In this document: one piece after another, positions 5,088 through 63,330 of the stretch
Numbering within the stretch: the first letter of the stretch is position 1
Layout of the letters: every line of letters begins with the position of its first letter
Origin: Branchiostoma floridae
Taxonomy: Eukaryota; Chordata; Leptocardii; Amphioxiformes; Branchiostomatidae
Length of the DNA stretch: 64,000 nt
Reading direction: 5' to 3'
Assembly: GCF_000003815.2 (NCBI RefSeq)
Contig: NC_049996.1
Span: 16,596,930-16,660,929 of the forward strand
Program-made: the position numbers and the translations under genes
Notes under the pieces: model-generated
Database searches by the model: none
Told to the model about the DNA's origin: nothing
Seen by the model: only the letters and a program-made list of their open reading frames with translations

Positions 5088-6271
5088 CTAGCCTTTCAGA
5101 CCAAAGGATTCGAGGAACTTGGTGTGTGATGCAGCCCAGTACTCCGAGGCCAAAAGTCTCTCCTTCAACCTTTGTGCGGCCTGAAACTCTCTGGATCCAT
5201 TCTTCAGGATATCGATGATGCGCTTGGACAGGGTTTTGGCGGCCTCATCGTCGTCGTCTCCGATCTCCACGATCGGGCGGTCGAAGTCGGGGTCCGTCTT
5301 CAAGAACATCGCCAGACCAGACTTGTGGGAGACCAGGACGGGCACCCCTGCAGCGATGGCCTCCAGACCAACCAGTCCGAATGGCTCTGCACGTGACGGC
5401 ATCAGCACGACACTTGCCGTTTCCATGTCCTCGCACAGCTCCTTCTGTGTGCCGTACTCCAAGGGGGTGAAATGGATGTCACCCGTTTTGGCCTGGATGA
5501 TGTCCCTGCTCGCCTGGAAATCTTCTTTTGCGATGCCGCGGGCTCGCCATTTGGTGTTGGGTAATGCTACGAAAACATCCCTCATGGACTTTGCGACTAG
5601 ATCATAGCCTTTCAGCCTCTCCACACCCTTGACCCTGCCGATGGACAGAACCACTTTCACGCTAGCATCGACGTATTTGACTCTTGCATTGCTGAAGATG
5701 TCGGATAGCTTAGGCAGGAACTCATAATGCGGGTCGAAATCTCTCGTCTCGCGTCTATAGTAGTCGTGCAGGTATGGGCCTACTGAGATGATCACGTCAG
5801 CATGTTTTAGGTCTTCAAGAATGTTTTTCTGCTCATCTCCGATGCTCAGCACCTTCCCATCGCTCTTGTAGTGGCTGGTGTCTTCTGGCATCACATGAGT
5901 GACTTCGACGAGTTTGGCGCCCGGAAACCGTTGCTCCTTGATCTGCCTTGCTGCATGGCTTGTGATGGGCACGTGGCCGACGATGAAGTCTACTGCAGGG
6001 AGGCTTGGATAACGAGTCGCGTGGTCAAAGGTCAGCCAATCAAGGCAGGGCTCCCTCTTGTCTCGGTCGGATGTTGTTGGAAAGATGAGATGAACCTCAT
6101 CAGCAGCTGCATCCTTCTTATCGTCTTCTGTGGCACTCAGGACTGTAGAATAGACCTCTGCACCTTTGGAACCCAGTAGGGACGCCATCTGGCAGTGGAT
6201 GGTGGAGATGCCGCCCTTTGCAGTTCCATACTCATCGTTGAGCAGCAACACCACAGGCCTGGCTCCAGGTC
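5088..6271 (-). CDS. Exon 11: GT4-type glycosyltransferase domain
   Basis: A single 1184-nt exon encodes about 394 residues. The N-terminal Rossmann half has NDEYGTAKGGISTIHCQMA, the glycine-rich start seen in GT-B enzymes. The C-terminal half starts VVLSIGRVKGVERLKGYDLV and contains EPFGLVGLE, matching the E-x7-E motif of GT4 enzymes, followed by AIAAGVPVLVS. These motifs bind the nucleotide-sugar donor, so the domain looks catalytically competent. The acceptor is unknown. The length is that of a complete two-lobed GT4 domain. The stop codon is at 5088-5090. Confidence 0.85.
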
Positions 6272-9200
6272 CTGGAAACAATTAAACCAAGAATTATATA
6301 AATGTTGAGATTATGTTTCAGATGTTTTGTTTCTGTTCAGACGCTGAGAAACTTTTACCATCTTTTATACCTTAATAGGTCTTAAAACAGAGAGCTGTGT
6401 AAACTTCGTGAGAACTTCGAATTGTCATTTGTCTCACTTCACACGCATCACATGTAAATATCGACAATAACTTAACTCTCTAACTAGGTTAGTTCGAATC
6501 TGTTTGTAAACTTTTGTTATTCCCTGAATCTGTTGTTCTGCGAGCCGATTTGAGCTTTCATGAATAAACAAAGATTCAACAATCAACCATTCATTCTTTT
6601 TGATATCATTTGCTGTGTTTCTACTTAAGTAAAGTAGAATGCAGGTGCCTTTGCCAGGTAGAATTCATGTCCAGCAAGCTCACCTCGCCTTCTTGGTGTC
6701 TTGCCTTGTAGTTCTTCCAGCAGGGCCCTCAAAGTGCGGTTTTCCTCTAGTAGTTGTAGCTGGGTTAGCTGCTCCTTCTGATGCCCGTCAAGAGAAGACT
6801 GTCCGGCTGCTGATCGCTTGGCTGGCGGTCCAGCTGATGTACCTGCCTGCCACTTATTACCTGACCGAGTCTGTAAAATCAAAATACATCGTTAGCTGGG
6901 ACGTATCAGCTGTAGCTGAAAACAAAAGACTTAATATCAAACGTTAATATTAGAACTTGAAAACAATTTGGTGCCAATACCTTGATACTGCCAACCTTCT
7001 CTGCTAGCATGTCCATGCCAAAGTCACTCAGCTCCTGCTGAAGCTTGTCCATGGACGCTTCTCGGTCTTTCTCCATCCACTTTAATAGCACATTATAGGT
7101 CTGGTAACTCGGGTTTTGTTTTCTTGAACTCTGAAAGTAAAGTAGAAATTTTGACATTGAATAATGGGACACAATGGTTGTTGTATTTTTACGAGGTATT
7201 GTACATACCAGATACATAGGTAGTCGTACAACGCAGGATTAGCACCAACATTCTTACAGGTGTAAACGATTGTTCTGCGAGTTTACATACACAACGTTTC
7301 TGATTGATACAAAACGTTTCCAAATGATGAAGTGTTCAAAAATATTTACCTGGATAATGGACGTCATCTCATTTGCTGTAAGTCCAAGTGCCACGCCCAG
7401 ATCTTCCACCTCGCGTGATTCAGTCACGTTTTGCGAAAAAAGGTGGAAGCGTTTCCTCTGTTCTTTCTCTGCAATGGCTGAAACATCGACATGAGTAGGA
7501 TTAAATGAGACCAGGCAAATATTTCAATATCAGCCTGCATTGAAGAAAGTAAGAAGCTTTTTCGGTTAAGACACATTTTGCTTGAAAGTAAATTGCATGA
7601 TTTTATCTACAAATAACCTACATCCACACAGTCACATACAGACTGCTGGTTTATAACTGCTGGTTCTACATCACCAGAATGGACCTACACATGGTTCAAG
7701 CAGCACGTATATGGTATTTAAGGTGTATCTATTGCCTCTATCTTAACTGAATGGTCCTAAAAAAGCCCAATCTTCAGGTTTGATCCTTCAACAGAATCCT
7801 CCCTATACATACCATCTTCTTTCTCTTTCAGCGTCCTTCTAAGGAAGTCCATGATGGCGGCTGTGCCTTTCTCGCAGACATCAGGAGGAGGGTATGTCAG
7901 GGGGTTTCCCGAGATGTCCATGTTCCACAGTGGGGCCAATCGGCTCAGAGTCAGAGGAAGGCGGGAAATTCTGTTATGTGACAAGATTAACTTCTCAATG
8001 TTGGACAGGTTCATGATTTGTTCAGGGACTGATGTGAACCTGTTTCCTTTGATGCTTAAGTACGTCAGCTGCACCAGTTTCCCAATGCCGTCAGGTAGTG
8101 ACTCCAAGCCACTAAACTGCAGATCCAAGACTTGTAGGTTCTTCAGTCTGTCGATGTCTTCAGGTACAGGTGAAGGTTTGCCATCCCCAGCCCAGCATGC
8201 CATGTATAGCGTCTCTAGGCCCTCCAGCTGCAGCACCTGCCTGGGGAACTCATCAAACTGGCAATTAACTATTTCAAGCCTTCTCAGTCCTGTGAGTTGA
8301 GATGTTTTGTCAGGGAGACACTTGAGGGGGTTATGTGACACGGAAAAGGTGTTCAGCTGAAGTAGTGAACAAACTTCTTCTGGTATCTTTTTGAATCTAT
8401 TTTTTTCGAGGTAGAGCTCGTGAAGCTGTAATCTGGAGATTCCATCAGGCAATGTTTCCAATTTATTGTCCGACAAGTGAATAAGCTGTAGGTTAGGTAG
8501 AGTAGTGATTGACTGCGGCAGTTGTGTCAGAAGGTTGCCTCTAAGTGTAAGTTCCTGAAGCTTCTGTAGTTGACCTATGTCCTCGGGTATGCTCGTCAGC
8601 CTGTTGTGAGACAGGTCAAGGCGTTCGATATCTGTGGCGTCAAACACCTCGGCTGGGAAGGAGGTCAGGCCTTTGCCACTGAGGTCGATAGTGAGCAGGC
8701 CATCCACTACTTTAGGTTTAAGCTCTAAAAAAATAAGAAGAATATTCTTTGCAATGAGCATCTGTATGGTTTAACTTTCAGAGCAAATTATTGCCTAGAA
8801 CGAAATATTTCTTGTACTTGATAAAACAGCAAAGAAAATACTAAATCAAAATGCATTTTTGAATCTAGCTTATGTAGGAATATTATCCAACAGGTGACAA
8901 AAGATTAACTTTATTGATGGCTTAATGTATATAGATATAATATTTATGTCAAAAATGAATGCACATAATCTAATGTTATGTGTATCATTCCATTCTAAAG
9001 TCAAACATTATTTGCAGAGAACTTAAAATCAATGATATACAATAGGAGCAAACTTGACAACTTGAAGAAATCCTAGCAGGATTGTTGGTGATAAAAAGAC
9101 ACTAACACTACGTAAAGATGACAGTACACGATGAGGGTACTTTTTTATCAGAAACCACCAGATGTGTTTCAACAACACATCTCACCAACGTTGAGATGCT

Positions 9201-9488
9201 TCGACCATTGTCTGCCCGGATGCCTTACCCTGCAGAAAACAACAGGATTTCAATGTTTAGAATTTTACAAGTAATGATTTCAGCAAAACTACACAGCAAA
9301 GTATTAACATGAGATGTATCAAGTTGAACACAGTACTAACGAGCTATATGTTTTACTTACGGATGTATTTTGATCTTACTTTGAAGTACTGGAACATCTG
9401 CAACACGTCCTCTTGTACTGCAAGCTCCTCTGCTGTCTTCTTATTCTGTAGGTAACGTAAACACACCTCATCAAGATTTTGTTGACAC

Positions 9489-9523
<35 letters not shown>

Positions 9524-11696
9524 TATATACATCATGATTGCATAATAATTGGTGTTTGTCTCTTTAATGGTTTAAACTCTACAAGAGGAGTTGTAATAAG
9601 ATGGTAATGCTTGTGAATTGCCTTTTGTTTTATAACTGTTAAACCAAGATCTGACATAAGAGCAGAACTACAAAATGCAGTAAGTTAGAAGCCTATATAG
9701 CGATTTCCCTTTCTCCGCTGACATTTTATAAAGTCACTTACCTCGTCTCTAATGACGGTGTTGGCTCCAGCCTTCAGCAGTGCTCTGACACACTCGGGGT
9801 GTCCATTTTCTGCCGCCATATGAAGGGGAGTCTGATTCTGTAGGTACAACAAAGTGGCGGGTGGTTCACAGGATTTACATGCTAAACATTAAAGGTTTCG
9901 TACACTGGCCATACAGTTTACATGTATATTTAAAGTTTACATTCAAAAGTTTACATTTAAAGTTGAACAAAATATTATGAAAAACATGGTCAGTTATAAC
10001 ATGCACCGGTTTTCTCGGCAAGAAATCGCAATGCACTATTTAGCAAATTGTTAAAGAGGAAATATTGTAAAGATAAACTTTTTATCATAATTTAAATGTT
10101 AAAGTTCTGATGCACATGCATAGTAATCTATTGTATAGTAATCTATTGTATAGATAAAAACATGCCTGGCTACATGCTTAGACGCAAGGTAGTGTCCAAG
10201 GTGTGTCTCAGCACAACTATTGGTCCGTTTGGAGGACTGCGTCCTAGATCACCCAACATACAAACTTTACATTGCGCAAACTCACATCGAAGTTTCGTGC
10301 ATTAATGTCCGCTCCAGCTGCCAGTAAAGCCTGTACAGTTCCTGTGTGTCCCTTCCCGGTTGCAAGGTGGAGAGGGGTGTCTTCCTACAAAGGGAACATG
10401 AACAAATATTAAATGATACATATCTTGCAAAAGTCCTTACATGTCTCCAATACAAACCAAGGACCGTTACAGTTAAACTCATGCCAGTACAGACTTGTCA
10501 CTTGTCTTGATGTAACTTTTAGTTGTGAGTTAGGCCTGTGTAGTTCTTGTGACTTAAGTACGTTATAAGATAGGACAACATACAGACGCGTCAGTGCCAT
10601 TATCATTATTTTCTACGCCAAAACACTAAATCTCAGGACAGGGGCAGTTAGACAGAATCAAGTAACCAGCAAACTTACCACGCTGTCTCTTGAGTCAACA
10701 GGTGCTCCAGCTGTGAGTAAAGCTTGTACAGTTCTTGTGTGTCCGTTCTCGGATGCATGGTGGAGAGCAGTATATCCCTGTACAAAGACAAGTGTACGGA
10801 AGCTCCATGTAAGACCAGACACGTACTTGTTCCGCAGCCTTATCGGAACCTCACGTATTGTGTAAAGGCATAGATGATCATATATCTATCTATCTATCTA
10901 TCTATCTGCCATCTATCTATATAAAGAAGTTTGCCAAATTATCTTAAATATAACCTTTTAAGAACTGCAAAATGAAATGATCTTATATAAAAAAGAATCA
11001 ACGAAGGTCATTTCTAATCAAGTGTTTAAAATCATTCATGGAGATTTCCAGACAACAGACACGAACTCACGCCGTGGGCAGCATTGACATTGACCCCCTC
11101 GGCTAGTAGCTGCTGAACTCTGACCTCGTCACCTCGCCCGGCGGCATCTATCAGCTCCTGTGGAACAGAAACATCCAGCAAACATGAAACTCTTTATTAA
11201 GATGTATGGGACAAGACTTGGTTACGGCCATAAAGTCTTACTTGAACAGAATTTTTTCCACTCTGAAAGGAAAGGCCTTTAGGTTTGGTCGGCGTCTTTG
11301 TAACGAAGACCTTTTCACGGTTCCCGTTGAATGCTGTGAGCACTATGGGTAGACAGTCCAGGACGTACAAAACTGAAGATGTTCGCAGTATCACGTCAGC
11401 CTATTTACGATTCTTTACAGTAGTGTCATCATGTTACAGTAATGTTGTTAGCGTCTTCTATGTGTTGGTTTTTCAACATCAACCAACACATGATTTAGAG
11501 GGTGATCTCAGGAAAGGCAGAGGTTGATTTTCAACGAAAGCATTTTTTATTGAATGATTGGCAGGATCATCATTCTACCCGGCGTCTATTACTTCAATGT
11601 GCACTTTCCTACTTGGTGCAGTGTTACACTGTCTTCGTTTATTTAAACTACTAACTTTAAAATAAGAGCTTCACCAACCTTTTCCTTCTCTTCCAT
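5088..11696 (-). CDS. ANK-LRR-death domain-coiled coil-GT4 glycosyltransferase fusion protein (11 exons)
   Basis: Predicted exons, 5' to 3' on the minus strand: 11696-11679, 11157-11071, 10777-10679, 10384-10286, 9837-9742, 9445-9361, 8724-7813, 7477-7350, 7130-6981, 6870-6684, 6271-5088. All have GT/AG borders and compatible phases, total 3045 nt, 1014 aa plus stop. The order is ankyrin repeats (about 7-160), leucine-rich repeats (about 165-440), death domain (about 466-558), coiled coil (559-620) and a GT4 glycosyltransferase (621-1014). There is no signal peptide, so it is probably cytosolic. Repeat sensor plus death adaptor plus C-terminal enzyme resembles NLR-type innate sensors, but no NACHT is present. 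The start is the ATG of MEEKEK; untranslated exon(s) probably lie upstream, possibly at 14.87 kb. The junction 9361/8724 has an alternative in-frame solution. Function is inferred from domains only. Confidence 0.85.
6684..6870 (-). CDS. Exon 10: linker and coiled coil
   Basis: This 187-nt exon encodes a Ser/Ala/Gly-rich linker and then a short heptad-rich helix (QLTQLQLLEENRTLRALLEE) before the basic KTPRRRG that leads into the glycosyltransferase. The heptads suggest dimerisation. If the donor at 6683 is not used, the frame reads 19 more codons to a stop at 6625-6627, giving a natural short form lacking the enzyme; this is inference. Confidence 0.75.
6981..7477 (-). CDS. Exons 8-9: death domain
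   Basis: Exon 8 (7477-7350) and exon 9 (7130-6981) join in phase 0. The product carries the six-helix death-fold pattern: VEDLGVALGLTANEMTSIIQ, then SYQTYNVLLKWMEKDREAS, then LQQELSDFGMDMLAEKV. The LGL core and the (V)LLKWMEK helix with conserved Trp are hallmarks of the family. Death domains assemble homotypic oligomers in apoptotic and NF-kB signalling; the partner here is unknown. Confidence 0.85.
7813..8724 (-). CDS. Exon 7: leucine-rich repeat domain
   Basis: One 912-nt exon encodes about 12 leucine-rich repeats of the 23-residue LxxLxLxxNxLxxLPxxI type (for example LDLSHNRLTSIPEDIGQL and LILSHNRISRLP). This is the SDS22/PIDD-like class. It ends in a cap-like segment, NPLTYPPPDVCEKG, followed by the helix AIMDFLRRTLKEKED, which also precedes the death region in PIDD-like proteins. 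The donor after GAAGATG leaves phase 1, matching the next exon. Confidence 0.9.
9361..11696 (-). CDS. Exons 1-6: start and ankyrin repeats
   Basis: Exon 1 gives MEEKEK. Exon 2 begins ELIDAAGRGDEVRVQQLL. Exons 3 and 4 are 99 nt each and each encodes one 33-residue ankyrin repeat with the TALHHA/TPLHLA, GHTRTVQALL/GHTGTVQALL and AGA consensus. Exon 5 (96 nt) gives TPLHMAAENGHPECVRALL. Exon 6 (85 nt) encodes a terminal half-repeat (KKTAEELAVQEDVLQMF). All internal borders are phase 0 except the last. One-repeat-per-exon organisation permits gain or loss of repeats. Ankyrin repeats bind protein partners; the ligand is unknown. Exon 6 could also end at an earlier gtaaga (after FQYFK) and join an alternative acceptor in frame. 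Confidence 0.85.
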
Positions 11697-17789: not shown

Positions 17790-19465
17790 ATGATGGAGGC
17801 GACTGGAGATGAGCATCTAGAGTCGGATGAGGAGCCCAGCTGTGCAGAAACTCACAACGGAGGGACAGGGGAACAGCAACTAGAGATTCACAGTGGTGAG
17901 AGACCACAGCAAGCATCTTTTACGTCAAAGAGGCGCAATCTAAAAGGTCATGCTGGTGAAACCAAGAGTGAAAAGAAGCGGAAGAGACACAGTTGTCCGC
18001 ACTGCGACTGTATGAAACAGACACCAAACTGACGATGACGCAACACATCATGACACACACTGGTGAGAGACCATTCCGGTGCCAGCAGTGTGACTATTCG
18101 GCAGCGCAGACGGCTACCCTTAAACAGCACATCCGGGCTGTGCACACCGGTGAGAGACCTTACCACTGTGGCTACTGTGACTATTCCGCAACCCAAAAGG
18201 GAGCTTTAAAAAGACACATGTTGAAACACACACAACCTAAAATTAAGGTTAAAAAGGAGCCAAAGAAACACAGCTGTCTGCACTGCGAGTATGTTACGAT
18301 AAATAAACCAGATATGACAAACCACATCAGGACCCACACCGGTGAGAAACCCTTCATGTGCGAACAGTGTGACTATTCTGCAGCACGGAAACATGAACTG
18401 AAACAGCACGTCCTGTCTGTGCACACCGGTGAGAGACCTTACAACTGTGGCCACTGTGACTTTTCCACGTCAAGGAAAAGCGGTCTTTTCGTTCACATCC
18501 GGACGATACACGGCGGGGAGAGGGCCTATCAGTGCCAGTTTTGTGAGTTTTCTGCTCAACAGTCTGGTCACCTGAAAGAGCACGTCATGGCTAAACACAG
18601 CAACAACAGGCCGCACAAATGCACACTGTGCGACTTTTCTTCAGTAACCAAAAAGAGCTTAAAGCTTCACATGACGACCCACACAGGAGAGAAACCTTAC
18701 AGTTGTGAGTTGTGCAGTTATGCCTCCAGACAAAAAGGCCAGTTAAAGCTGCACATGGCTAAACACACTGGGGAGAAGCCATATAAATGTAAAGTCTGTG
18801 ATTATGCTAGTGCATCAAAGTCATGGTTAAAAAGTCACATGGTCACTCACACTAGCGAGAAGCCACACAAGTGTGAACTGTGTGATTATTCTACAGCACA
18901 AATGTATCGTTTGAAACTGCACATGGCCAACCACACTGGGGAGAAACCTTTTCGCTGTGAACACTGTGACTTTTCCACAGCAGAAAAACAAAACTTGAAA
19001 CGCCACATGGCTAAACACACCGGTGACAAACCGCACAAATGTGAACATTGTGACTATTCTACAGCGCATAGGAGCCTTCTGAATCGTCACATGGCAACTC
19101 ACACTGGTGAGAAACCTTACAAATGTGATGTATGCGGCTTTGCGACGGCACATAAACGCTGTCTGAAAGACCACATGACTAAACACACAGGCGAGAAGCC
19201 TTTCCAATGTGAGAAATGCGACTTTTTCACAACCCAAAAAGCCCACTTGGCTGATCACATGTTTAGACACGCCGGTGAGAAGCCGTACATGTGTGAGGTG
19301 TGCGGTTTTAAGGCAGCAGTGAAGGGTGGCTTGAACCAGCACATGGCCACACACACGAAGCCCCACAAGTGTGACCAGTGCGACTACTCCGCAGCCCTGA
19401 AGTTTCATTTAGACAGGCACATGAAAAAACATACCATGGGCAAAAATGACAGTCTGACAGCTTGA
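17790..19465 (+). CDS. C2H2 zinc-finger protein, 16 intact fingers, with a frameshift in an additional N-terminal finger
   Basis: The coding start ATGATGGAGGCG follows an acceptor-like TCTTTAAAATCAG, so untranslated exon(s) probably lie upstream. The first frame gives an acidic/basic N-terminus ending in CPHC at the first finger. The frame then breaks at 18009-18010 and continues in another frame with the rest of that finger (YETDTKLTMTQHIMTH). From 18.07 to 19.43 kb there are 16 regular fingers of form C-x2-C-x12-H-x3/4-H joined by TGEKP/TGERP-type linkers. Expected role: nuclear DNA-binding transcription factor with a long finger array. If the frameshift is real, translation might start at an in-frame ATG at 18035. 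The stop is TGA at 19463. Confidence 0.85.
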
Positions 19466-23360: not shown

Positions 23361-25845
23361 TTACTTCTCCGCATTAGCCAAAGTTGCCATGGGTGTGTTT
23401 ATATCAGAGTCGGTTCCACCTGCTGCTGCCTCAGGTTCTTCTTCGGTGGTCTGCTGGTTGCCGGCAGAGGGATGTCCTCCATTGTAAGGATGAACCATGT
23501 TCCTCTTCACATCAGTGAGAGTTGTCAGGGACACGTCTGCAGCAGAGACAGTTTCACCTGCGGTGGTCTGCTTATAGCAGGCTGCGGCGGTTCCTCCACT
23601 GCCCTGATGAGTCTGAAGGCGTGCCCTAGCCTCCTCCACAACGGAGGCAGTTGCCATGGGAATTTCTTCCGCAGAGCCGGTTCCACCTACCTTTACCTCA
23701 GTTTCAACTGTGGTGCTCTCTTCGACGTGCACAACGGCAAAAGTTGTCATGGGGATCTTCTCCGCAAAGCCTGGTCCACCTGCCTTTACCTGAGATTCTC
23801 CTCCGATGCTCTGCCGCCTGCCAGCAGCGACAGCTCGTCCTCCGGTGACCCGCCGGGCCTTGGGTGCGGAGGTTCGCTCTTTTCCTGGCTGAAGTCGCGT
23901 CCTGTTCTCCTCGACATCAGTGAGAGTTGTCATGGGTATGTCTGTAGCTGAGTCGGTTCCAGATGCCGCCATCCCAGTTCTCCCTCCAATGGTTGCCCGG
24001 CTGGTACCAGTGGTGGTGGTTCGTCCACCGTCCTGATTTGGTTCGGCCAGACTCAAGCGTGCTCTGATCGCAGACCTCCATTTCTGCACCACCTCTGACG
24101 TTATTGTCAGTATCAGGGCCAATAGAAGGCCCTGAGAAGCGTTCAGCACAATAAAGATATACTCGATAACTCTACTGTTGGTGTAAGGATAGATGAAGCC
24201 GAGAATCCAGGTGAACCCCATCAGAAAGGAGATACGTATGTAGACCCAGGCCTTGCTGCTCTCTGAGCGCGACAAAGCAGCATTGGCTATCTTAAACGAC
24301 TTCCGTATGGCCAGCAGGGCAAAAGTGACCAAGACGGTATTAACCAGAAGGGCACAGAGGACAGGAATTCCGAAAGCCACCAGACTGGCTACCGGATTGC
24401 CGATCCAACAGTTCTCTCCGTAACCCACCCTGACAGAACTACCGAACTCCACGATCATTGTCACTACTACTACAGGTACCGGCACCAGACAGGTGTACAA
24501 GCGGTACTGGTACAGTTTTGCTCTTTCTAAACCGTCACCAAACGTAAGAAAGATATCAATAGCAAGCGCGTTTACAGATGTGAAGATGGTCAGCAGGAAG
24601 TAGTGCAGAAGTATCGCGAACACTGCACAGCCCACTCCGAGAGGCACCCACACACGTACCACAAACATGGCTTCAGCAAATGCCACGCATGCCATCATCT
24701 GAACCTTCAGCTTTTCCGCGACTTTTTCCCACTGGCCAGACCGAACTGAGTAGACCGCGAAAACAATCACTGCTACTGCAGACACTATCACAAGACCCAG
24801 GGTTAACCACCCCTGGTATGGGTCCCGAATGTGGGTTGGCGGTGTGTGATCCTGTGTGTTGTTCGAGAAGTGCTGCAGTACGCACTCCCCGCAGATCGAT
24901 GCTGTTGTGTTCAGAATGGCCACCTGCTCAGCTGGGCAGGACACGTTAGAACTCAACAGGTGGACGCTGCCATTGGGAAGGATACGGAACTCTTCCGCTG
25001 TGAACGTTAGAGCGGTTTCGCTGCAGTTTTGTGAGGGGATAGTTTTGTTTGATAAACCGTGAGTTCTACGGGAGGACGAGAAGAGCCGGCATGTGTCTGT
25101 GAAGGGATCGTATACAGTGTCGGAGGGACAATGAATGGGACTGTTTCCATCACTCACATCGGCGTTAAAGTTGAACAGATTAGTTAGTGATAATCTTTCG
25201 ACACAGTCTATAAACCCGCAACTTCCAGCAAAACTACCGCTACCCTTAGTATTATTACACCATAAATGTGTGGTTGCCGTAAGAGAGAGTCCTTCACAAA
25301 GAGCACAGTGGACATTTCTGTATATCTTATGTCCGATGCCTATAGGATAACTATAGGACCTACAGGCAGTAACATTACAACTCTCATGGGAAACATCAGT
25401 CTGGACACATCGTCGACCATATGACTCTCCTGAAGGGATGAACATTACCTTGTTCGTTCCAGTGCAATCTTTCTTACTATCAGTGATGCTGTAGTACGCT
25501 TGTGAGCCTTTAGCTGTGTGTGAGAACAGATTAATCAGTCCTGAACACTCCACTTTGGAGTCCCATAAGGTTACGTCTGTTAAAGACACGTTGTTACACA
25601 TTGCACAGAATATGTTTCTGTAGGGGACTGCACGTGTTGAAGTGTCTACCACGGGCATCCGGTAAACCAGATCACCTGGGTTGAAGGGATCCACGTGTTT
25701 CAGGCACTGATCCCTTGTGACGTCATCAGTCCAGCCGTCAGGGCAGTCAGCCATCATCCAATAGGACCACCTATCAGGAAATCCGGACACACAGCTCCAC
25801 TTCAGGTGGTGGTAGCCAGGGGGCGCTGCAGCAAAGCTGTCTTCT
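23361..25845 (-). CDS. GPCR exon 11: Cys-rich ectodomain, seven transmembrane helices, cytoplasmic tail
   Basis: The 2485-nt exon begins EDSFAAAPPGYHHLKWSC. The ectodomain has paired cysteines in YRNIFCAMCNNVS and YRNVHCALCEGLS, the pattern of Methuselah-like orphan receptors, and many N-glycosylation sites. The seven hydrophobic helices include a TM1 starting WLTLGLVIVSAVAVIVFAVY, TM3 with HYFLLTIFTSVNALAIDIFL, and TM6 with ISFLMGFTWILGFIYPY, the latter close to the family-B LLGLTW-GF signature. The tail (about 240 residues) has about five degenerate copies of a segment ending (I/V)PM(T/A)T. Stop at 23361. Confidence 0.9.
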
Positions 25846-28800
25846 CTGTAGTGGGTGTAGTGAAGTGACTAATTCGCGCTAGTCACGGCAAACTACAATT
25901 CTGTAAAGTTATTAGTCTAATTGCAAAAAATGCCGCTTGTATTTTTCTTATATGTTTTGCAAAGGATATAAATACGAGGCCATGAACCTTTTTCACCATA
26001 GAAACCAGTCATAGTAGCCTCCATCACCATCGTAACCGGCAACTGTGACATGCTCGTTTGTCAGCTCATGCATATATGCGTAAAGAGATGCTTACTCGAA
26101 GTCCTGACAACAGTCGCCGAAAAAGCTGCAGTCGCTGTCACAATAGCACAGTCTATCTTCGCGGAAAAGTAGTTCACCACAGGTATAGGCTTCTTTGCAG
26201 TCCTGGCCGATAAAGTCCAATGAGAGAGGATCTGAGGGGAAAAACCAGCGAAAAACTGGCTGTCGTTGCAGAAAAAACTTCACTGCTTTTTTTTTAACCT
26301 TACGATTGTTGACGCATGCTTTGCAGTTAAGTCAGGATATCTTTTGTCACCGCTGAGTGTAATAGTTTATTTATTTATACATTTATTTATTTATTTGGAT
26401 TCTCCACACTGACAATGGAGGGTATGGCGGAACAGGTGTCAAAGGACACCTTTTCGAAGCCGCCCTACCTAAAACATAACAATGATACATCAAATGATAA
26501 TACACATAAATACAAGAACAAATATCATAATCAATGTAAAGTTCAAATCAGGATAAATCAACTTTACAACACACATACATTATTGAGTCCAAATATATGA
26601 AATAGATATACATGTAGTCATAATAAAGGGCAAATTATCGTGGCCTTGTGGCAATGCAAGAGGCGCAACAGCATGCTAGTGACCATGTGCAAGCCTGCTC
26701 TAGCTTGAAGTTTTGTCGGAATCGGTTTTGCTTAAATGTAGATAGTTTTCGTTTAAAGGCAGACACATCGGACGGGCTTGTGTCTGAAGCTCCCAGCCCT
26801 CTGGTTTCAACGGGAAGTTTGTTCCAAATTGTGATAAGTCGTGGTGTAAATGAGAAGGCGAATGAACATGATCTTACTCTCTGAGGGACTAACATGTGTG
26901 CCCTTAAACTACGTGGCGTTCTTGAAGGGAATGCAGCTAACCTGGCTAGATCTGAATCATATACCTTTGCATGGGACTTAACGAAAACCACAACATCAGA
27001 CATCTCTCTTTGGTAAGACAGTGGTAACAAGCCTGGTCTAGATAGTCTAGACTTGTAGTCGAGGTGTTAAGTTAGAACTTATACTGTAAATGTTCGAGTG
27101 GTTTTATGTTCGCGGTTTTCGCGAGGCAGTCTTACCGCGAACTTAAAACCACCGTGAACATTTTTTCCATTACAGTATGTGACTACAGTGTATGGCACTA
27201 CCGCGAACACTCCATTTTTCCGTAACCGATTTCAACATGAGGTAAATCTTCCACGAGGAACATGTTTTCTATGATCTTTGAAAGCTGCTGACTCTTTTGA
27301 CCTCTTATAGATAAGAGTAAGAAGAAGAAGGGACAAGGTGGCTATATAAATGCGGGTACCAGGCTAGGATCCTTCGACGAAACAGACTAAGTCTGTTTGG
27401 CTATTTCTTTAGGATCACGGCATTCAAGATATGTATTTACAAATCTCTACTTAAAACTTGAGTACTGAGAATAAATCATAACTTTAGATATACTAACCAG
27501 CACATTCCATCACGTTGCAGTAGTCCCAACTTTGCGTCCCGTCCGTGGTGTAGCACCAGGGCCGCTCCTTGTTGTCAGGGTTACGGCAGAAGTTCTCCTC
27601 CAGGCCTGCATCAGGATGAGCCTGTGGTGTGTAGGGATGGCTGTGGGGAGACTGGGAGTCCCATCTCTGACACACCAGGTCTCCTGCCCTGTACAGATAT
27701 ACGGTATGTTAACGTGTAAAGAGCCTGTGGTGTGTGGGGATGGCTGTGGGGGGACTGGGAGTCCCATCTCTGACACACCCGGTCTCCTACTCTGTACAGA
27801 TGTACGGTATTTAAACGTGTAAAGAGCCTGTGGTGTGTGAGGATGTCAGTGGGGGGACTGGGAGTCCCATCTCTGACACACCCGGTCTCCTGCCCTGTAC
27901 AGATATACGGTATTTAAACGTGTAAAGAGCCTGTGGTGTGTGGGGATGGCTGTGTGGGGACTGGGAGTCCCATCTCTGACACACCCGGTCTCCTACCCTG
28001 TACAGAAATATGGTATATAAACGTGTAAAGAGCCTGTGGTGTGTGGGGATGGCTGTGGGGGGACTGAGAGTCCCATCTTTGACACACCCGGTCTCCTGCC
28101 CTGGATAGACATACGGTATGGTGTTAAATGTGTTAAGAGCCTGTGGTGTGTGGGGATGGCTATGGGGGGACTGGGAGGCATAACTCCTCCCCCTGTCCTG
28201 CATAGCTCCTCCCCCGCTCACCTGTTAATCTGTCCCGCATAGCTCCTCCCCCTATCCGCTGTGTTAGGTAATCTCACCTGTTAATCTGTCCCGCATAGCT
28301 CCTCCCCTTATCCGCTCACCTGTTAATCTGTCCTGCATAGCTCCTCCCCCTATCCGCTCACCTGTTAATCTGTCCTGTATATCTCCTCCCCCGCTCACCT
28401 GTTAATCTGTCCCGCATAGCCCCTCCCCCTATCCGCTCACCTGTTAATCTGTCCCGCATAGCCCCTCCCCCTATCCGCTCACCTGTTAATCTGTCCCGCA
28501 TAGCCCCTCCCCCTATCCGCTCACCTGTTAATCTGTCCCGCATAGCCCCTCGCCCTATCCGCTCACCTGTTAATCTGTCCCGCATAGCTCCTCCCCCTAT
28601 CCGCTCACCTGTTAATCTGTCCTGCATAGCCCCTCCCCCTATCCGCTCACCTGTTAATCTGTCCTGCATAGCTCCTCCCCCTATCCGCTCACCTGTTAAT
28701 CTGTCCTGCATAGCCCCTCCCCCTATCCGCTCACCTGTTAATCTGTCCCGCATAGCCCCTCGCCCTATCCGCTCACCTGTTAATCTGTCCCGCATAGCTC

Positions 28801-30902
28801 CTCCCCCTATCCACTGTGTAGAAGCACCTCGTCGGTGGAGCTGAGAACAGAAAACCATGTCAGGACAGAAGATACAAAAACCGAAAGTTCTGCTGCAATG
28901 CCAAGGTCAGTCTATAATTGATTTTGACCTTCGTTTACCCACCCAAGAAATATCACCACAGTCCAGAGGCTCTTCAGCTGTGCTGAGCACAAATATCCGG
29001 ATACACAACCATGTAAACAAACACACAAACACAGAGACGGACCAAAAACCATACCTCCGTCTATCATGGAGGTAAAACAAGGGGATGGACTGTAAGTCTT
29101 TAAGCTTTCGTTGAAGATACAAAAAGTTGAAGTTACCGTCACATGCGAAGACCTCCTCGCAGTACATCCACCTGATGAGCGGGTTGTTTGTGTAGCACCA
29201 CGGCCTGTCCTTCCCGTCCGGGTTCCGGCAGTAGTTCCGCTCCAGCCCTGCCCGTGGGTAGGCCTGGGGAGTGTGGTTATGGGGGTGAGGGTACTGATAT
29301 GTCCAGAACTGACACGAGTCGCTCCGGTTAGCAAGGCCCCTGTAGCTCGTCCCTCTGTCATGTAGATAGTAACAGTCTGCGGACATAAAACGTGGTTACA
29401 TCGTAAACGCTGCGCACGAAAGGACTGTACATTCTTACCAGCAGGCACAGGAAGTCTGGGCGTGGTTGATTGTTGTAAACTTAAACTCCCTACTATAGCC
29501 CTACAGCTAAACTAAGTACCAACCTAGGCCTATAGCTTGATGGAAACATGAGATGGGAAAAATCATTGCTAGCAACTGGCGTCCTTATGTTTAGCTCCCA
29601 AATATTCTGAGGGAACCTTGTGTCGTTAGAGGCCACTGTACCCTTCCTGATGAATAATTCAGTGCTCTGCACATTTGATGGGATTATTACAATCTTTATT
29701 GACACGACAAAAGTACAGCGACTTTCGTAAGGTCTACATGTATAACAACTACTTACAGTACAACTAAACACATATATATGGATATCTATATATGGATACA
29801 TCAACATAAAGGGTCTAGCTGCTCTAGCATGTCATTTACACTATTGGTTCTACGGTATAAACAATCGTGGATATATTTGCCTACTTGTACACAATGTGGA
29901 TTATCGCCTCCCAGAATGTAGTTGAATCTATCTATCGAACAGAGAGTAGCAAATTCTTTAGAGCAAGCGGAAAGTAAAACACTGTCTCACCACAGTTCCT
30001 CTCATCACTATTGTCCCCACAGTCGTCTTTACCGTTACAGCGAGTAGCCGGGTGGAACAGGGCGCCGTTGTCGCAGGCAGAGGCACCTGAGGGATAGAAA
30101 ATACTAGTATCCGTCATCACAGTTCAATACAGGAACCCAAAACGCTTGAGAGGTTTTTAAAGCCTTGTTTTGTGGTGACTTGCAGTAAATTATTTCAGCT
30201 TTGCAGTGAGAGTAAAGACTTACCTTCTCCTCTGCTGCAGTCCACCCTGCCCCGCCGCTCGCCTGTAGCAAACACAAGTAGAAACATCAAACCTGCATTG
30301 CCGTGAATATTGTAGTGTTTGCCCATGATGATGATGAAATTCAGAAAATTCATGAAAATCAGAGAGTTTTAAATTTATTCATTAAACAACAGCTTTACAA
30401 GCAAGGAGAAGGGAAGGGAAGATAAGAAGACTGTGTCGATACTCACAGCAGTTCTGCTCGTCTGTGTTGTCTCCACAGTCGTCATTGCCGTCACACACGA
30501 GTGCCTTACTGATGGTGGCTCCGTTCGGACACATCTCTTCATCTAGATATTAAAAAAGACAGAACGTCGTGGGAAAAGTCTAAAAACTTGCATTCAAGTT
30601 CATCTGCGTAGAATGCAGCTGTTATTCCATGCACATAACTGGTCTGTGTTAAAGTTTGTTTCTTCCAGACCATTCCGGTACAACTTTTGTCTGCTTCACG
30701 CCAACCCTGCTGACCCCTTCTTGGTTCGTGCCTTACCGCAGTTTTGTTCATCGCTCCCATCGTCACAGTCCACTATCCCGTCACAGATCACCTCATGCAC
30801 GTCACAGTCCCCGTCCGTACAGACCGTCCTCTCCAATCCGGAACAGGCTGGGCGAACAGAAGGAGACACAGGGTCTGTTTGTGTCTCTGTGTGTGTGTGT
30901 GT

Positions 30903-36648: not shown

Positions 36649-37031
36649 CCACTGTGCTAGGCAGACCCAGCACACACACCACTGTACCAGGTAGACCCAG
36701 CACACACACCACTGTACCAGGTAGACCCAGCACACACACCACTGTACCAGGTAGACCCAGCACACACACCACTGTACAGCACACACACCACTGTACCAGG
36801 TAGACCCAGCACACACACCACTGTACCAGGTAGACCCAGCACACACACCACTGTGACAGGTAGACCCAGCACACACACCACTGTGACAGGTAGACCCAGC
36901 ACACACACCACCGTGACAGGTAGACCCAGCGCACACACACCACTGTGACAGGTAGACCCAGCGCACACACCACTGTGACAGGTAGACCCAGCGCACACAC
37001 CACTGTACCAGGCAGACCCAGCACACACAAC
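36649..37031 (+). repeat. 30-bp minisatellite directly before the start codon (copy 1)
   Basis: About 13 units of CCACTGTACCAGGTAGACCC AGCACACACA-type sequence, the later ones with GTGACAGG in place of GTACCAGG and GCGCACAC in place of GCACACAC. It runs to the base before ATG at 37032. The coding frame remains open back to 36945 through part of the array, so an N-terminal extension is possible but unlikely given the good signal peptide at 37032. The paralogue has the same array. Confidence 0.9.
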
Positions 37032-53337
<16,306 letters not shown>

Positions 53338-61225: not shown

Positions 61226-63330
61226 AATAATAATCTTTATTGCAAGTTCATGCCCGACGGCTAATTGCAGACAAAGTAAAGTAGTGGTATACATAAAATA
61301 AATTGTATACTTTACAGAGAAGGAAAATGGGAACTACAGATAAAACAAAAAAGAAATAACGTCTAATCTAAATATATTTCTACTTAAACTACTAGTATTT
61401 GATGGGTTTGACTTCTTTTCCGTATGCAGTGGGAGATGACTTGTCCAACATTTTCATATAAAAAGGGGTTGGACGACTTAAGCAAGAAGATTGTTTTTTG
61501 TTGGTCGGTAAGGTGAGAAAAGCCTGGGAAAGATTTGTAGATTTTAAGGAAAAGTTTGTTTCTTTTGGAATTGTAATGTGAACATTGACATATAAAATGT
61601 AGTTCATCTTCCACTGCTTTCCCTGAACAGTATTTACATGTTCTCTCGTCAACGGACAGCTTTTTGTACCTGCCCCTCTCTATTTGAAATGAATGAGCAC
61701 TTGTCCTCATTTTACATAAAGCGGATCTCAAAATCTGTGTGGTACAGGTAACTCTCCATACTGTACTCAGATGTAAGTTTTTTATATAATCTTAATTTAC
61801 CAGTATTAACAGATAATTGATGAAGAGATCTTTAAATCTGTCCACAACAGAACTTTAAGAAATAATGCCAGCTACACCAGTTTCAAATGTAGGACGTCCC
61901 GGTTGAGTAACAGCACTCTCCCCTATTGCGTCAGACTCCTCAATGAAAACTTGTAGTGTTTTTTAAAGGAATCGGACATGTCAGTATAGCGTATTTGATA
62001 TGTTGTATATATATATATAGTGTATATATACGTATATGTGAAATTTGTGATCATTGTACAAAATTGCAATTCAGCCGTTAGGCTGCAACAGTTTTTTAAT
62101 CCAATAAACCATTTCTCTCTCTCTCTCTCTAAATTTACATGTCTGTTAGCCTTTTCCTTAGCGATACACAAACATGCTTACTATCAACATCTACATTGTT
62201 ACTGTGCCAGATGAATGAATTACCGCTACTATCTAGTATTTCTTTTACATGGTATAATCAGTTTTCTTGATATTATTCATCATATCATTTTGTTGGGACA
62301 ATAGAGCGTCTGCTTGTAAGGGATGTGTGTATACATGTGTCCAGTTGTCTTAACCGCAACCAATACTTAAGTATCCTAACTGAAACATCAACATCTAATG
62401 GAAATATTCCGAGTTCAACTTTGCATGCCATGTTGCTGACGTTTCTATCAACTCCTAGAATACTTTTGCAAAAACGGTTGTGAAGCACTTCAACTGGAGA
62501 ATTATCCTGCAAGTGGTCTTTACCCCAAATTTCGCTACCATATAGCATGATAGGCTTAATACATGTATCAAAAATTTGCAATAGATTCTTTATAGATATT
62601 GGAGAACGGATGAGGGATCTTATACAGAACACAGCTTTACGTGCTTTAAGAGAAAGTTCTTTTTTGGCTAAGGAAAAGTTGCCTGAAGCGGACAAGAACA
62701 GACCTAGGTAACAATATGATGTGCTGGTTTCTGTTTGCCTTGAACCGAACAAGAAATTCTCATTTTTTTAATTTACTTATAGTTTCCACCTGGTGCAAAA
62801 AATACTTCGTCTGTCTAATGCTAATTGTAACCCTTTCTCTCTATAAAAATGACAACGTCGTCTGCATAAAGTAGACAAAGATACAAGTAAGTTGTGTAGG
62901 GTAGGTGGGGAACATTCTGGGGTGCCTAATTCCTTAACTGAGTCGTTGATAAATAAATTGAAAAGTGTGGGGATGACATTGCAACCCTGCTTTACACCTC
63001 TATAAGTTATAGAAGGTGGAGTGAGACCTGATTATGTTTCTATGCAAGTCTGGGGATTCGAGTACATTGATTTAATTAGGCAGGAAAATTTTCCACCAAT
63101 TCCTGAGTCAAGTCAGACTATATCTTAGTCCTTCGTGCCACACTGAATCAAAGGCCTTTTTAAAATCGATAAAGCAGGCATAAAGTTTTCTGTTACTATT
63201 GATATATTTTGATAGTAATGAGTCGATTACAAAAATATTGTAGCGTGTTCCGAAGTTTTTCCTGAATCCTGCTTGGTTTGGGAGATAATTGTGTGTTCAT
63301 CTAGGAAGTTGGTTAGCCGAGTGTTGAGGA
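61226..63330 (-). mobile_element. Decayed LINE with reverse-transcriptase remnants
   Basis: Reading the minus strand from right to left: at about 63270-63125 ACFIDFKKAFDSVWHEG, a reverse-transcriptase motif; at about 63000-62950 GVKQGCNVIPTLFNLFIND, the next motif; at 62752-62285 a 155-codon frame with YLGLFLSASGNFSLAKKELS and LYGSEIWGKD; at 61731-61384 a Cys motif CKYCSGKAVEDELHFICQC. The order is correct for the 3' half of one element, broken by frameshifts and stops. The 3' end has an (ATA)n tail at 61222-61232. Not functional. Confidence 0.8.

What the first reader, a model, noticed from the sequence alone, without database searches (positions are those of the whole stretch)
5088..11696. 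One protein joining ankyrin repeats, LRRs, a death domain and a GT4 glycosyltransferase
Seen: eleven exons splice in frame into 1014 residues with five recognisable segments, and the glycosyltransferase keeps the E-x7-E motif and the glycine-rich N-terminal start. Known: LRR-plus-death proteins (PIDD-like) and ankyrin/LRR sensors belong to innate signalling; as I recall, some cnidarian NLR proteins were reported with a glycosyltransferase group 1 domain. Inference: a NACHT-less sensor whose oligomerisation through the death domain may switch on a C-terminal sugar-transfer effector. Transferring a sugar as an immune output would be a new mode for an animal death-domain protein.
Basis: partly seen in the sequence, partly recalled or inferred. 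Interest (0 to 1): 0.9.

Follow-up and report, generated by a model that had tools for sequence, protein, structure and literature searches.

The report
Amphioxus immune-type sensor ending in glycosyltransferase
An amphioxus gene joins pathogen-sensor-like repeats and a death domain to a sugar-transferring enzyme of a family known from bacterial self-defence proteins, and neighbouring relatives of the gene carry a different ending in its place, as if the weapon at the end of the sensor can be swapped.

The parts
11679..11696 (-). exon 1, start codon (MEEKEK)
   Evidence: same start exon in L105, L106, L107, L113; one codon shorter in L125; not found in L120
9742..11157 (-). exons 2-5 (11157-11071, 10777-10679, 10384-10286, 9837-9742): ankyrin repeats, one per exon, all phase 0
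   Evidence: (Ank 4.5e-27)
9380..9445 (-). exon 6, end of ankyrin region
9190..9229 (-). exon 7, 40-nt microexon, donor GTTGGT
   Evidence: conserved in L105, L106, L107, L125
7813..8724 (-). exon 8, leucine-rich repeats (about 12 by eye); exposed strand positions diversified among paralogues
   Evidence: (LRR_8 9.2e-29)
7350..7477 (-). exon 9, first part of death domain
   Evidence: Death 7.6e-9
6981..7130 (-). exon 10, second part of death domain
6684..6870 (-). exon 11, linker (coil-like by eye), ends in phase 1
   Evidence: (no family)
5088..6271 (-). exon 12, GT4-conflict glycosyltransferase and stop codon; E931 at 5361-5363, E923 at 5385-5387

Best explanation
The gene encodes one cytosolic sensor-effector protein. 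The LRR face (with the ankyrins) binds a foreign or altered ligand; binding frees or clusters the death domain; clustering switches on the C-terminal GT4 enzyme, which moves a sugar from a nucleotide-sugar donor to a target in the infected cell or on the invader. The C-terminal enzyme is a phase-1 cassette that evolution swaps: in tandem relatives it is replaced by Roc-COR-Death-trypsin or by a FIIND-Death end. Shown by computation: the architecture, the GT4 fold and catalytic residues, purifying selection on GT4, fast change of exposed LRR positions, the expansion in the genome, the different ends behind the same death and linker exons. Inferred: ligand binding, clustering, activation, donor, acceptor, immune role, and that the swapped relatives are working genes.
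Against: No transcript, activity or infection data. The swapped neighbour L125 has its LRR exon in two different frames (residues 1-112 in one, 106-302 in another), so it may be a pseudogene or hold an assembly error; LRR exons of L126-L129 were not fetched. The death domain is absent from the whole-protein Pfam listing and no solved death domain was found by sequence. One of three pairs without shared branches (L113-L120) gives exposed dN over exon dS of only 0.70, and the bootstrap of exposed dN over exposed dS includes 1 (0.98-2.45). The exposed positions were chosen by me from the repeat pattern. Death exons reach dN/dS 1.09 on few sites, and exon 9 is below GT4 in some pairs. PF20706 also exceeds its cut-off in 14 of 14 control genomes, so passing the cut-off alone does not prove the family.
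Confidence: 0.58

Rival explanations
1. The GT4 domain serves as a sugar-nucleotide sensor or scaffold inside a signalling protein, not as a sugar-transferring output.
For: No activity data exist; LRR-Death proteins such as PIDD work as scaffolds (recalled); some swapped relatives end in FIIND-Death without an enzyme.
Against: H727, K848, E923 and E931 kept in 26 of 26 amphioxus copies read; GT4 dN/dS at most 0.40 in 21 of 21 pairs.
Confidence: 0.18
2. A constitutive or metabolic glycosyltransferase (surface or glycolipid synthesis) that has gained protein-binding repeats.
For: The fold is that of metabolic glycosyltransferases.
Against: Metabolic GT4 families score far below their cut-offs; 57 or more copies with OTU, FIIND, Roc-COR and other death exons upstream in some of those read; exposed LRR positions diversify.
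Confidence: 0.09
3. Two genes: an Ank-LRR-Death protein and a separate GT4 gene, wrongly joined.
For: No cDNA was available; a neighbour with the same sensor exons lacks GT4.
Against: The acceptor AG|RAYCTGGAG in phase 1 recurs 342-470 nt behind the same linker donor in 7 of 7 loci compared on four chromosomes; the window's GT4 exon has no start codon before its glycine loop.
Confidence: 0.04
4. Immune sensor as proposed, but the output is signalling through the death domain, and the GT4 only modifies the protein itself or its partners as a regulator.
For: Death domains recruit partners (recalled); relatives with further death domains instead of GT4.
Against: A trypsin-like protease stands where GT4 stood, which is the pattern of effectors.
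Confidence: 0.11

Closest known systems
GT4 domains in metazoan and bacterial conflict systems (Kaur et al., eLife 2021, PMC8195603; Pfam PF20706 GT4-conflict)
   Same: Same GT4 family, effector position, association with LRRs and with a partner domain of death signalling; cephalochordates named for the GT4-TRADD-N-LRR form; bacterial LRR-Roc-COR proteins with GT4 or trypsin among the exchangeable C-terminal effectors (passages, section 15).
   Different: No TRADD-N match here; order Ank-LRR-Death-GT4. The text seen does not describe Death-GT4 fusions, selection on LRRs or cassette replacement in animals; figures and supplements were not seen.
Acropora Glycos_transf_1 proteins with NACHT-LRR, TPR or ankyrin repeats (PMC12314368, PMC4083563; passages)
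   Same: GT group 1 domain joined to LRR or ankyrin repeats, tandem expansion; most ankyrin and TPR forms lack NACHT.
   Different: The amphioxus protein has both repeat kinds plus a death domain and no NACHT.
Bacterial CATRA-GT4 (L008, L005), TIR-NB-ARC-GT4 (L017) and P-loop-GT4 (P0002, P-loop by eye)
   Same: GT4 26-32% identical to the window's, same catalytic columns, C-terminal.
   Different: Other sensors and switches; no ankyrin-LRR-Death found.
PIDD1 / LRDD
   Same: LRR followed by a death domain (recalled).
   Different: No FIIND (ZU5-UPA) match in the window protein and an enzyme at the end; FIIND occurs in relatives.

Membership tests
GT4-conflict (PF20706) | profile match over its length, well above related GT4 profiles | tested here: met
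   243.6 bits over 1-381 of 385 against 50.9 bits for PF00534; but the profile also passes its cut-off in 14 of 14 control genomes
GT4-conflict (PF20706) | fold of family GT4 enzymes | tested here: met
GT4-conflict (PF20706) | catalytic E-x7-E, R and K, glycine loop, H | tested here: met
   roles of the residues recalled
GT4-conflict (PF20706) | role as effector in a conflict system | not testable with these tools
   needs activity and infection tests
NLR (NACHT-LRR) | NACHT or NB-ARC domain | tested here: not met
   no such family listed in the Pfam scan of 1021 aa at E 0.1
PIDD1 / LRDD | LRR, FIIND (ZU5-UPA) and death domain | tested here: not met
   LRR and death met; no FIIND listed for the window protein
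GT4-TRADD-N proteins of Kaur et al. | TRADD-N domain next to GT4 | tested here: not met
   no TRADD-N listed
Death domain family (PF00531) | profile match above cut-off | tested here: met
   36 bits against 22.6 on the isolated segment; absent from the listing of the whole protein

The most novel reading that the evidence does not exclude
Amphioxus keeps a tandem array of death-domain sensors whose recognition face is under diversifying selection and whose last cassette is exchanged at one phase-1 intron between enzymes (GT4 glycosyltransferase, trypsin-like protease) and a FIIND-Death signalling end: an animal counterpart of the interchangeable effectors of bacterial LRR-Roc-COR and NACHT systems, with sugar transfer as one of the outputs.
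Probability: 0.4. Interest if true: 0.82.

Novelty: new variant of a known kind. Interest (0 to 1): 0.63.

Why it matters
GT4 was proposed as an immune effector of animals from domain architectures (PMC8195603). This locus adds three things that make the idea testable in a chordate: a complete single-gene sensor-effector model, a selection pattern that separates a changing recognition face from a constrained enzyme, and replacement of the enzyme by a protease end within one tandem array. If the GT4 domain proves active on clustering, sugar transfer would join proteolysis, NAD cleavage and pore formation (recalled) as outputs of intracellular sensors, and amphioxus would show how such outputs are exchanged.

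Tried and rejected
Single-protein search of genome contigs with P0001 found no relative (89 stretches, none confirmed); an alignment of four GT4 domains then gave 65 loci. Phages: no tblastn match. Plasmids: 9 records, none covering 80% of the query. Viral contigs: 27 loci, 20 of them matching 80 residues or fewer around the E-x7-E motif, not followed. PDB sequence search with the death segment gave 6 matches, a designed repeat protein and troponin C, taken as chance. A model that skips exon 7 and uses a second AG before exon 8 stays open (1008 residues) but was rejected because that second AG is not seen in the paralogues and the microexon is conserved. A bacterial donor of the GT4 could not be named: the 26 amphioxus rows form one side of a branch (SH-aLRT 100) on a long stem, in a quick tree with long-branch warnings.

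Papers: the name GT4-conflict occurs in none. Two searches for GT4 or glycosyltransferase effectors against phages gave one paper each, not on this by title and abstract start (listings only). Amphioxus searches: one search held 147 papers, 15 listed, the eLife 2021 paper first; one search held 9, of which PMC2575513 was looked into by passages and has no 'glycosyl'; one search held 2, of which PMC3499355 by passages concerns another glycosyltransferase; one search held 3, 2 listed. PMC13133943 passages mention the coral NACHT-GT combination. My statement that the Ank-LRR-Death-GT4 order and the swap were not found in print rests and the passages read; figures, supplements and subscription papers were not seen.

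Full report
What is there. The window lies at G000:C18:16596930-16660929 of a 513-Mb genome in 431 contigs. On the minus strand between 11696 and 5088, twelve exons splice in frame into 1021 residues without an inner stop. Pfam finds ankyrin repeats, leucine-rich repeats and, over residues 636-1009, GT4-conflict with E 5.4e-71. The death domain is weak: it is missing from the listing of the whole protein and scores 36 bits (cut-off 22.6, E 7.6e-9) when the residues of exons 9-10 are scanned alone. The linker exon matches nothing. No NACHT, NB-ARC, TRADD-N or FIIND was listed for this protein.

Is it one gene? Yes, as far as DNA can tell. I fetched 20 further GT4 loci of the same genome with 8 kb upstream; 8 of the 20 hold runs of N. 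In 6 of the 20 the window's death and linker exons precede the GT4 exon in the same order: L105, L106, L107 on the same chromosome, L113 on C11, L120 on C5, L116 on C4. The LRR exon was found in 5 of those 6 (not in the stretch held for L116); ankyrin exons 2-5 in L105, L106 and L107 only. From linker donor to GT4 acceptor the distance is 342-470 nt in the 7 loci including the window, and the acceptor reads AG|RAYCTGGAG. The first methionine of the window's GT4 exon lies behind the glycine loop. The 40-nt exon 7 is conserved with its unusual donor in L105, L106, L107 and L125, altered in L113 and L120; the start exon in L105, L106, L107, L113 and, one codon shorter, L125.

Where it comes from. 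The own-genome search scored 57 of 102 candidates, and 57 of 57 were over the cut-off with no stop inside, so 57 is a lower bound; 26 were read further. In a quick tree the 26 amphioxus rows form one side of a branch against the 40 bacterial rows (SH-aLRT 100), on a long stem and with long-branch warnings. The first 7 of the 65 bacterial loci listed are all actinobacterial by title. Of 8 bacterial proteins scanned, 2 are CATRA-GT4, 1 TIR-NB-ARC-GT4, 1 AAA_22-GT4, 1 GT4 with TPRs (and AAA_16 below cut-off), 1 TPR-GT4, 1 has two matches below cut-off (EAD1, fvmYukDl_N) before GT4, and 1 shows only glycosyltransferase families. The eLife 2021 paper had reported such contexts and proposed a lateral transfer into animals (section 15).

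Selection. The GT4 exon has NG86 dN/dS of 0.18-0.40 in all 21 pairs of seven paralogues; the LRR exon 0.48-0.71 in the 5 pairs with the window gene; death exons 0.26-1.09 in the 12 exon comparisons with the window gene, on few sites. Within the LRR exon of six paralogues, 55 positions on the exposed side of the strands (my choice from the repeat pattern) have pooled dN/dS 1.50, 54 scaffold positions 0.21, the other 197 columns 0.47; 0 of 300 random column sets reached the exposed nonsynonymous rate. With the whole exon's dS as denominator the value is 1.60 (column bootstrap 1.21-2.11); with the exposed columns' own dS the bootstrap is 0.98-2.45; leaving out one paralogue at a time gives 1.34-1.95; three pairs that share no branch on the GT4 tree give 2.38, 0.70 and 2.31. 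Shared ancestry and gene conversion are not modelled. This is the pattern expected of a recognition surface, seen in the C18 copies and not in the L113-L120 pair.

Cassette replacement. A genome search with the window's death domain gave 22 matches, in which I count 12 places of exon 10 (four are flagged with a TAG; in L107, L126 and L127 this is the intron's own acceptor, and L129 reads the same). Seven are followed by the GT4 exon (window, L105, L106, L107, L113, L116, L120). Three continue into a Roc GTPase (L125, L126, L129): the first Roc exon scores below Pfam's cut-off in L125 and L126, a second in L126 above it (9.1e-7); L129 lies on a 3.8-kb contig and looks like a copy of L126. In the two that could be read on, COR-A (1.3e-18, 1.8e-16), a second death domain (2.6e-10, 1.9e-9) and a trypsin-like peptidase (3.4e-14, 1.8e-14) follow. 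Two more (L127+L132, L128+L133) continue into a second death domain, FIIND (4.2e-19, 3e-19) and a further death domain. The neighbour L125+L130 begins about 1.6 kb left of the window on the same strand and has counterparts of the window's exons 2-11 and then the trypsin end. Against an intact neighbour: its LRR exon is open in one frame for residues 1-112 and in another for 106-302, without stops inside either part, so it is a pseudogene or holds an assembly error. In L131, behind the trypsin exon, stand 25 codons from the end of a GT4 exon (positions 364-388 of 389, 60% identical) and its 3' flank (78% over 270 nt), so in that copy the GT4 exon was replaced, or lost after the new end came in. 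Linker donors of L125 and L126 are in phase 1, as in the GT4 genes. Ankyrin and LRR exons of L126-L129 were not fetched.

Mechanism. I take the protein for an intracellular sensor with an enzyme as output: recognition by the LRR face, clustering through the death domain, activation of sugar transfer. The first and last parts rest on the selection pattern and the intact enzyme; the middle step and the target are inference. Interchange of GT4 with a protease end behind one linker is what one expects of effectors rather than of a metabolic enzyme, and the same two effectors are named among the exchangeable ends of bacterial LRR-Roc-COR proteins (section 15).

Novelty. GT4 as an animal immune effector, its link to LRRs and to the TRADD-N domain, and its presence in cephalochordates were in print (PMC8195603), as were coral proteins with ankyrin or LRR plus GT (PMC12314368, PMC4083563; passages). 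The Ank-LRR-Death-GT4 order, the selection split and the swapped ends were not found in the searches made. Hence: new variant of a known kind.

Noticed in passing
L110 (G000:C3:31925783-31935167) and L114 (G000:C17:3102183-3111513): GT4 exons preceded on the same strand by death and FIIND exons (FIIND 2.6e-21 and 4.3e-19; L110 also Roc 7.3e-11 and COR-A below cut-off). FIIND is the self-cleaving domain of NLRP1, CARD8 and PIDD (recalled); whether these copies keep the cleavage site was not tested.
   Followed up: partly
L118 (G000:C14:1965106-1974578), L119 (C8:12555474-12564807), L123 (C4:22403921-22413385): OTU-type protease exons upstream of the GT4 exon (L118 1.3e-6; L119 5.6e-7 and 2.5e-9; L123 0.00019, below cut-off); L118 also has LRR-Roc-COR upstream, like bacterial LRR-Roc-COR effector proteins.
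   Followed up: partly
L124 (G000:C17:16184186-16193658): Two death-domain exons (1.5e-16, 3e-15) upstream of a GT4 exon.
   Followed up: no
L125 (G000:C18:16588300-16596930), LRR exon: The LRR exon of the gene just left of the window lies in two different frames (residues 1-112 and 106-302): pseudogene or assembly error not decided.
   Followed up: partly
L002 (Rhizobium pTiK1_93) and L003 (Sinorhizobium pSymA): Long proteins (1637 and 1645 aa) with a P-loop-like start by eye and, in L002, a C-terminal GT4-conflict domain (8.9e-113), on plasmids typed as conjugative.
   Followed up: partly
L004 (Rhizobium pRSpC104g): N-terminal GT4-conflict joined to B12-binding and radical SAM domains in one protein of 1313 aa.
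   Followed up: no
window 17972-19465 (+), 23361-25868 (-), 28907-29395 (-), 36924-40088 (+), 62285-62767 (-): By eye only: a C2H2 zinc-finger array, an adhesion-GPCR-like frame, a kringle-like frame, a long LDL-receptor class A array, a retroelement fragment.
   Followed up: no
L122 (G000:C17:10975934-10985336): A second GT4 copy in two open frames lies upstream of the intact one; intron or break not decided.
   Followed up: no
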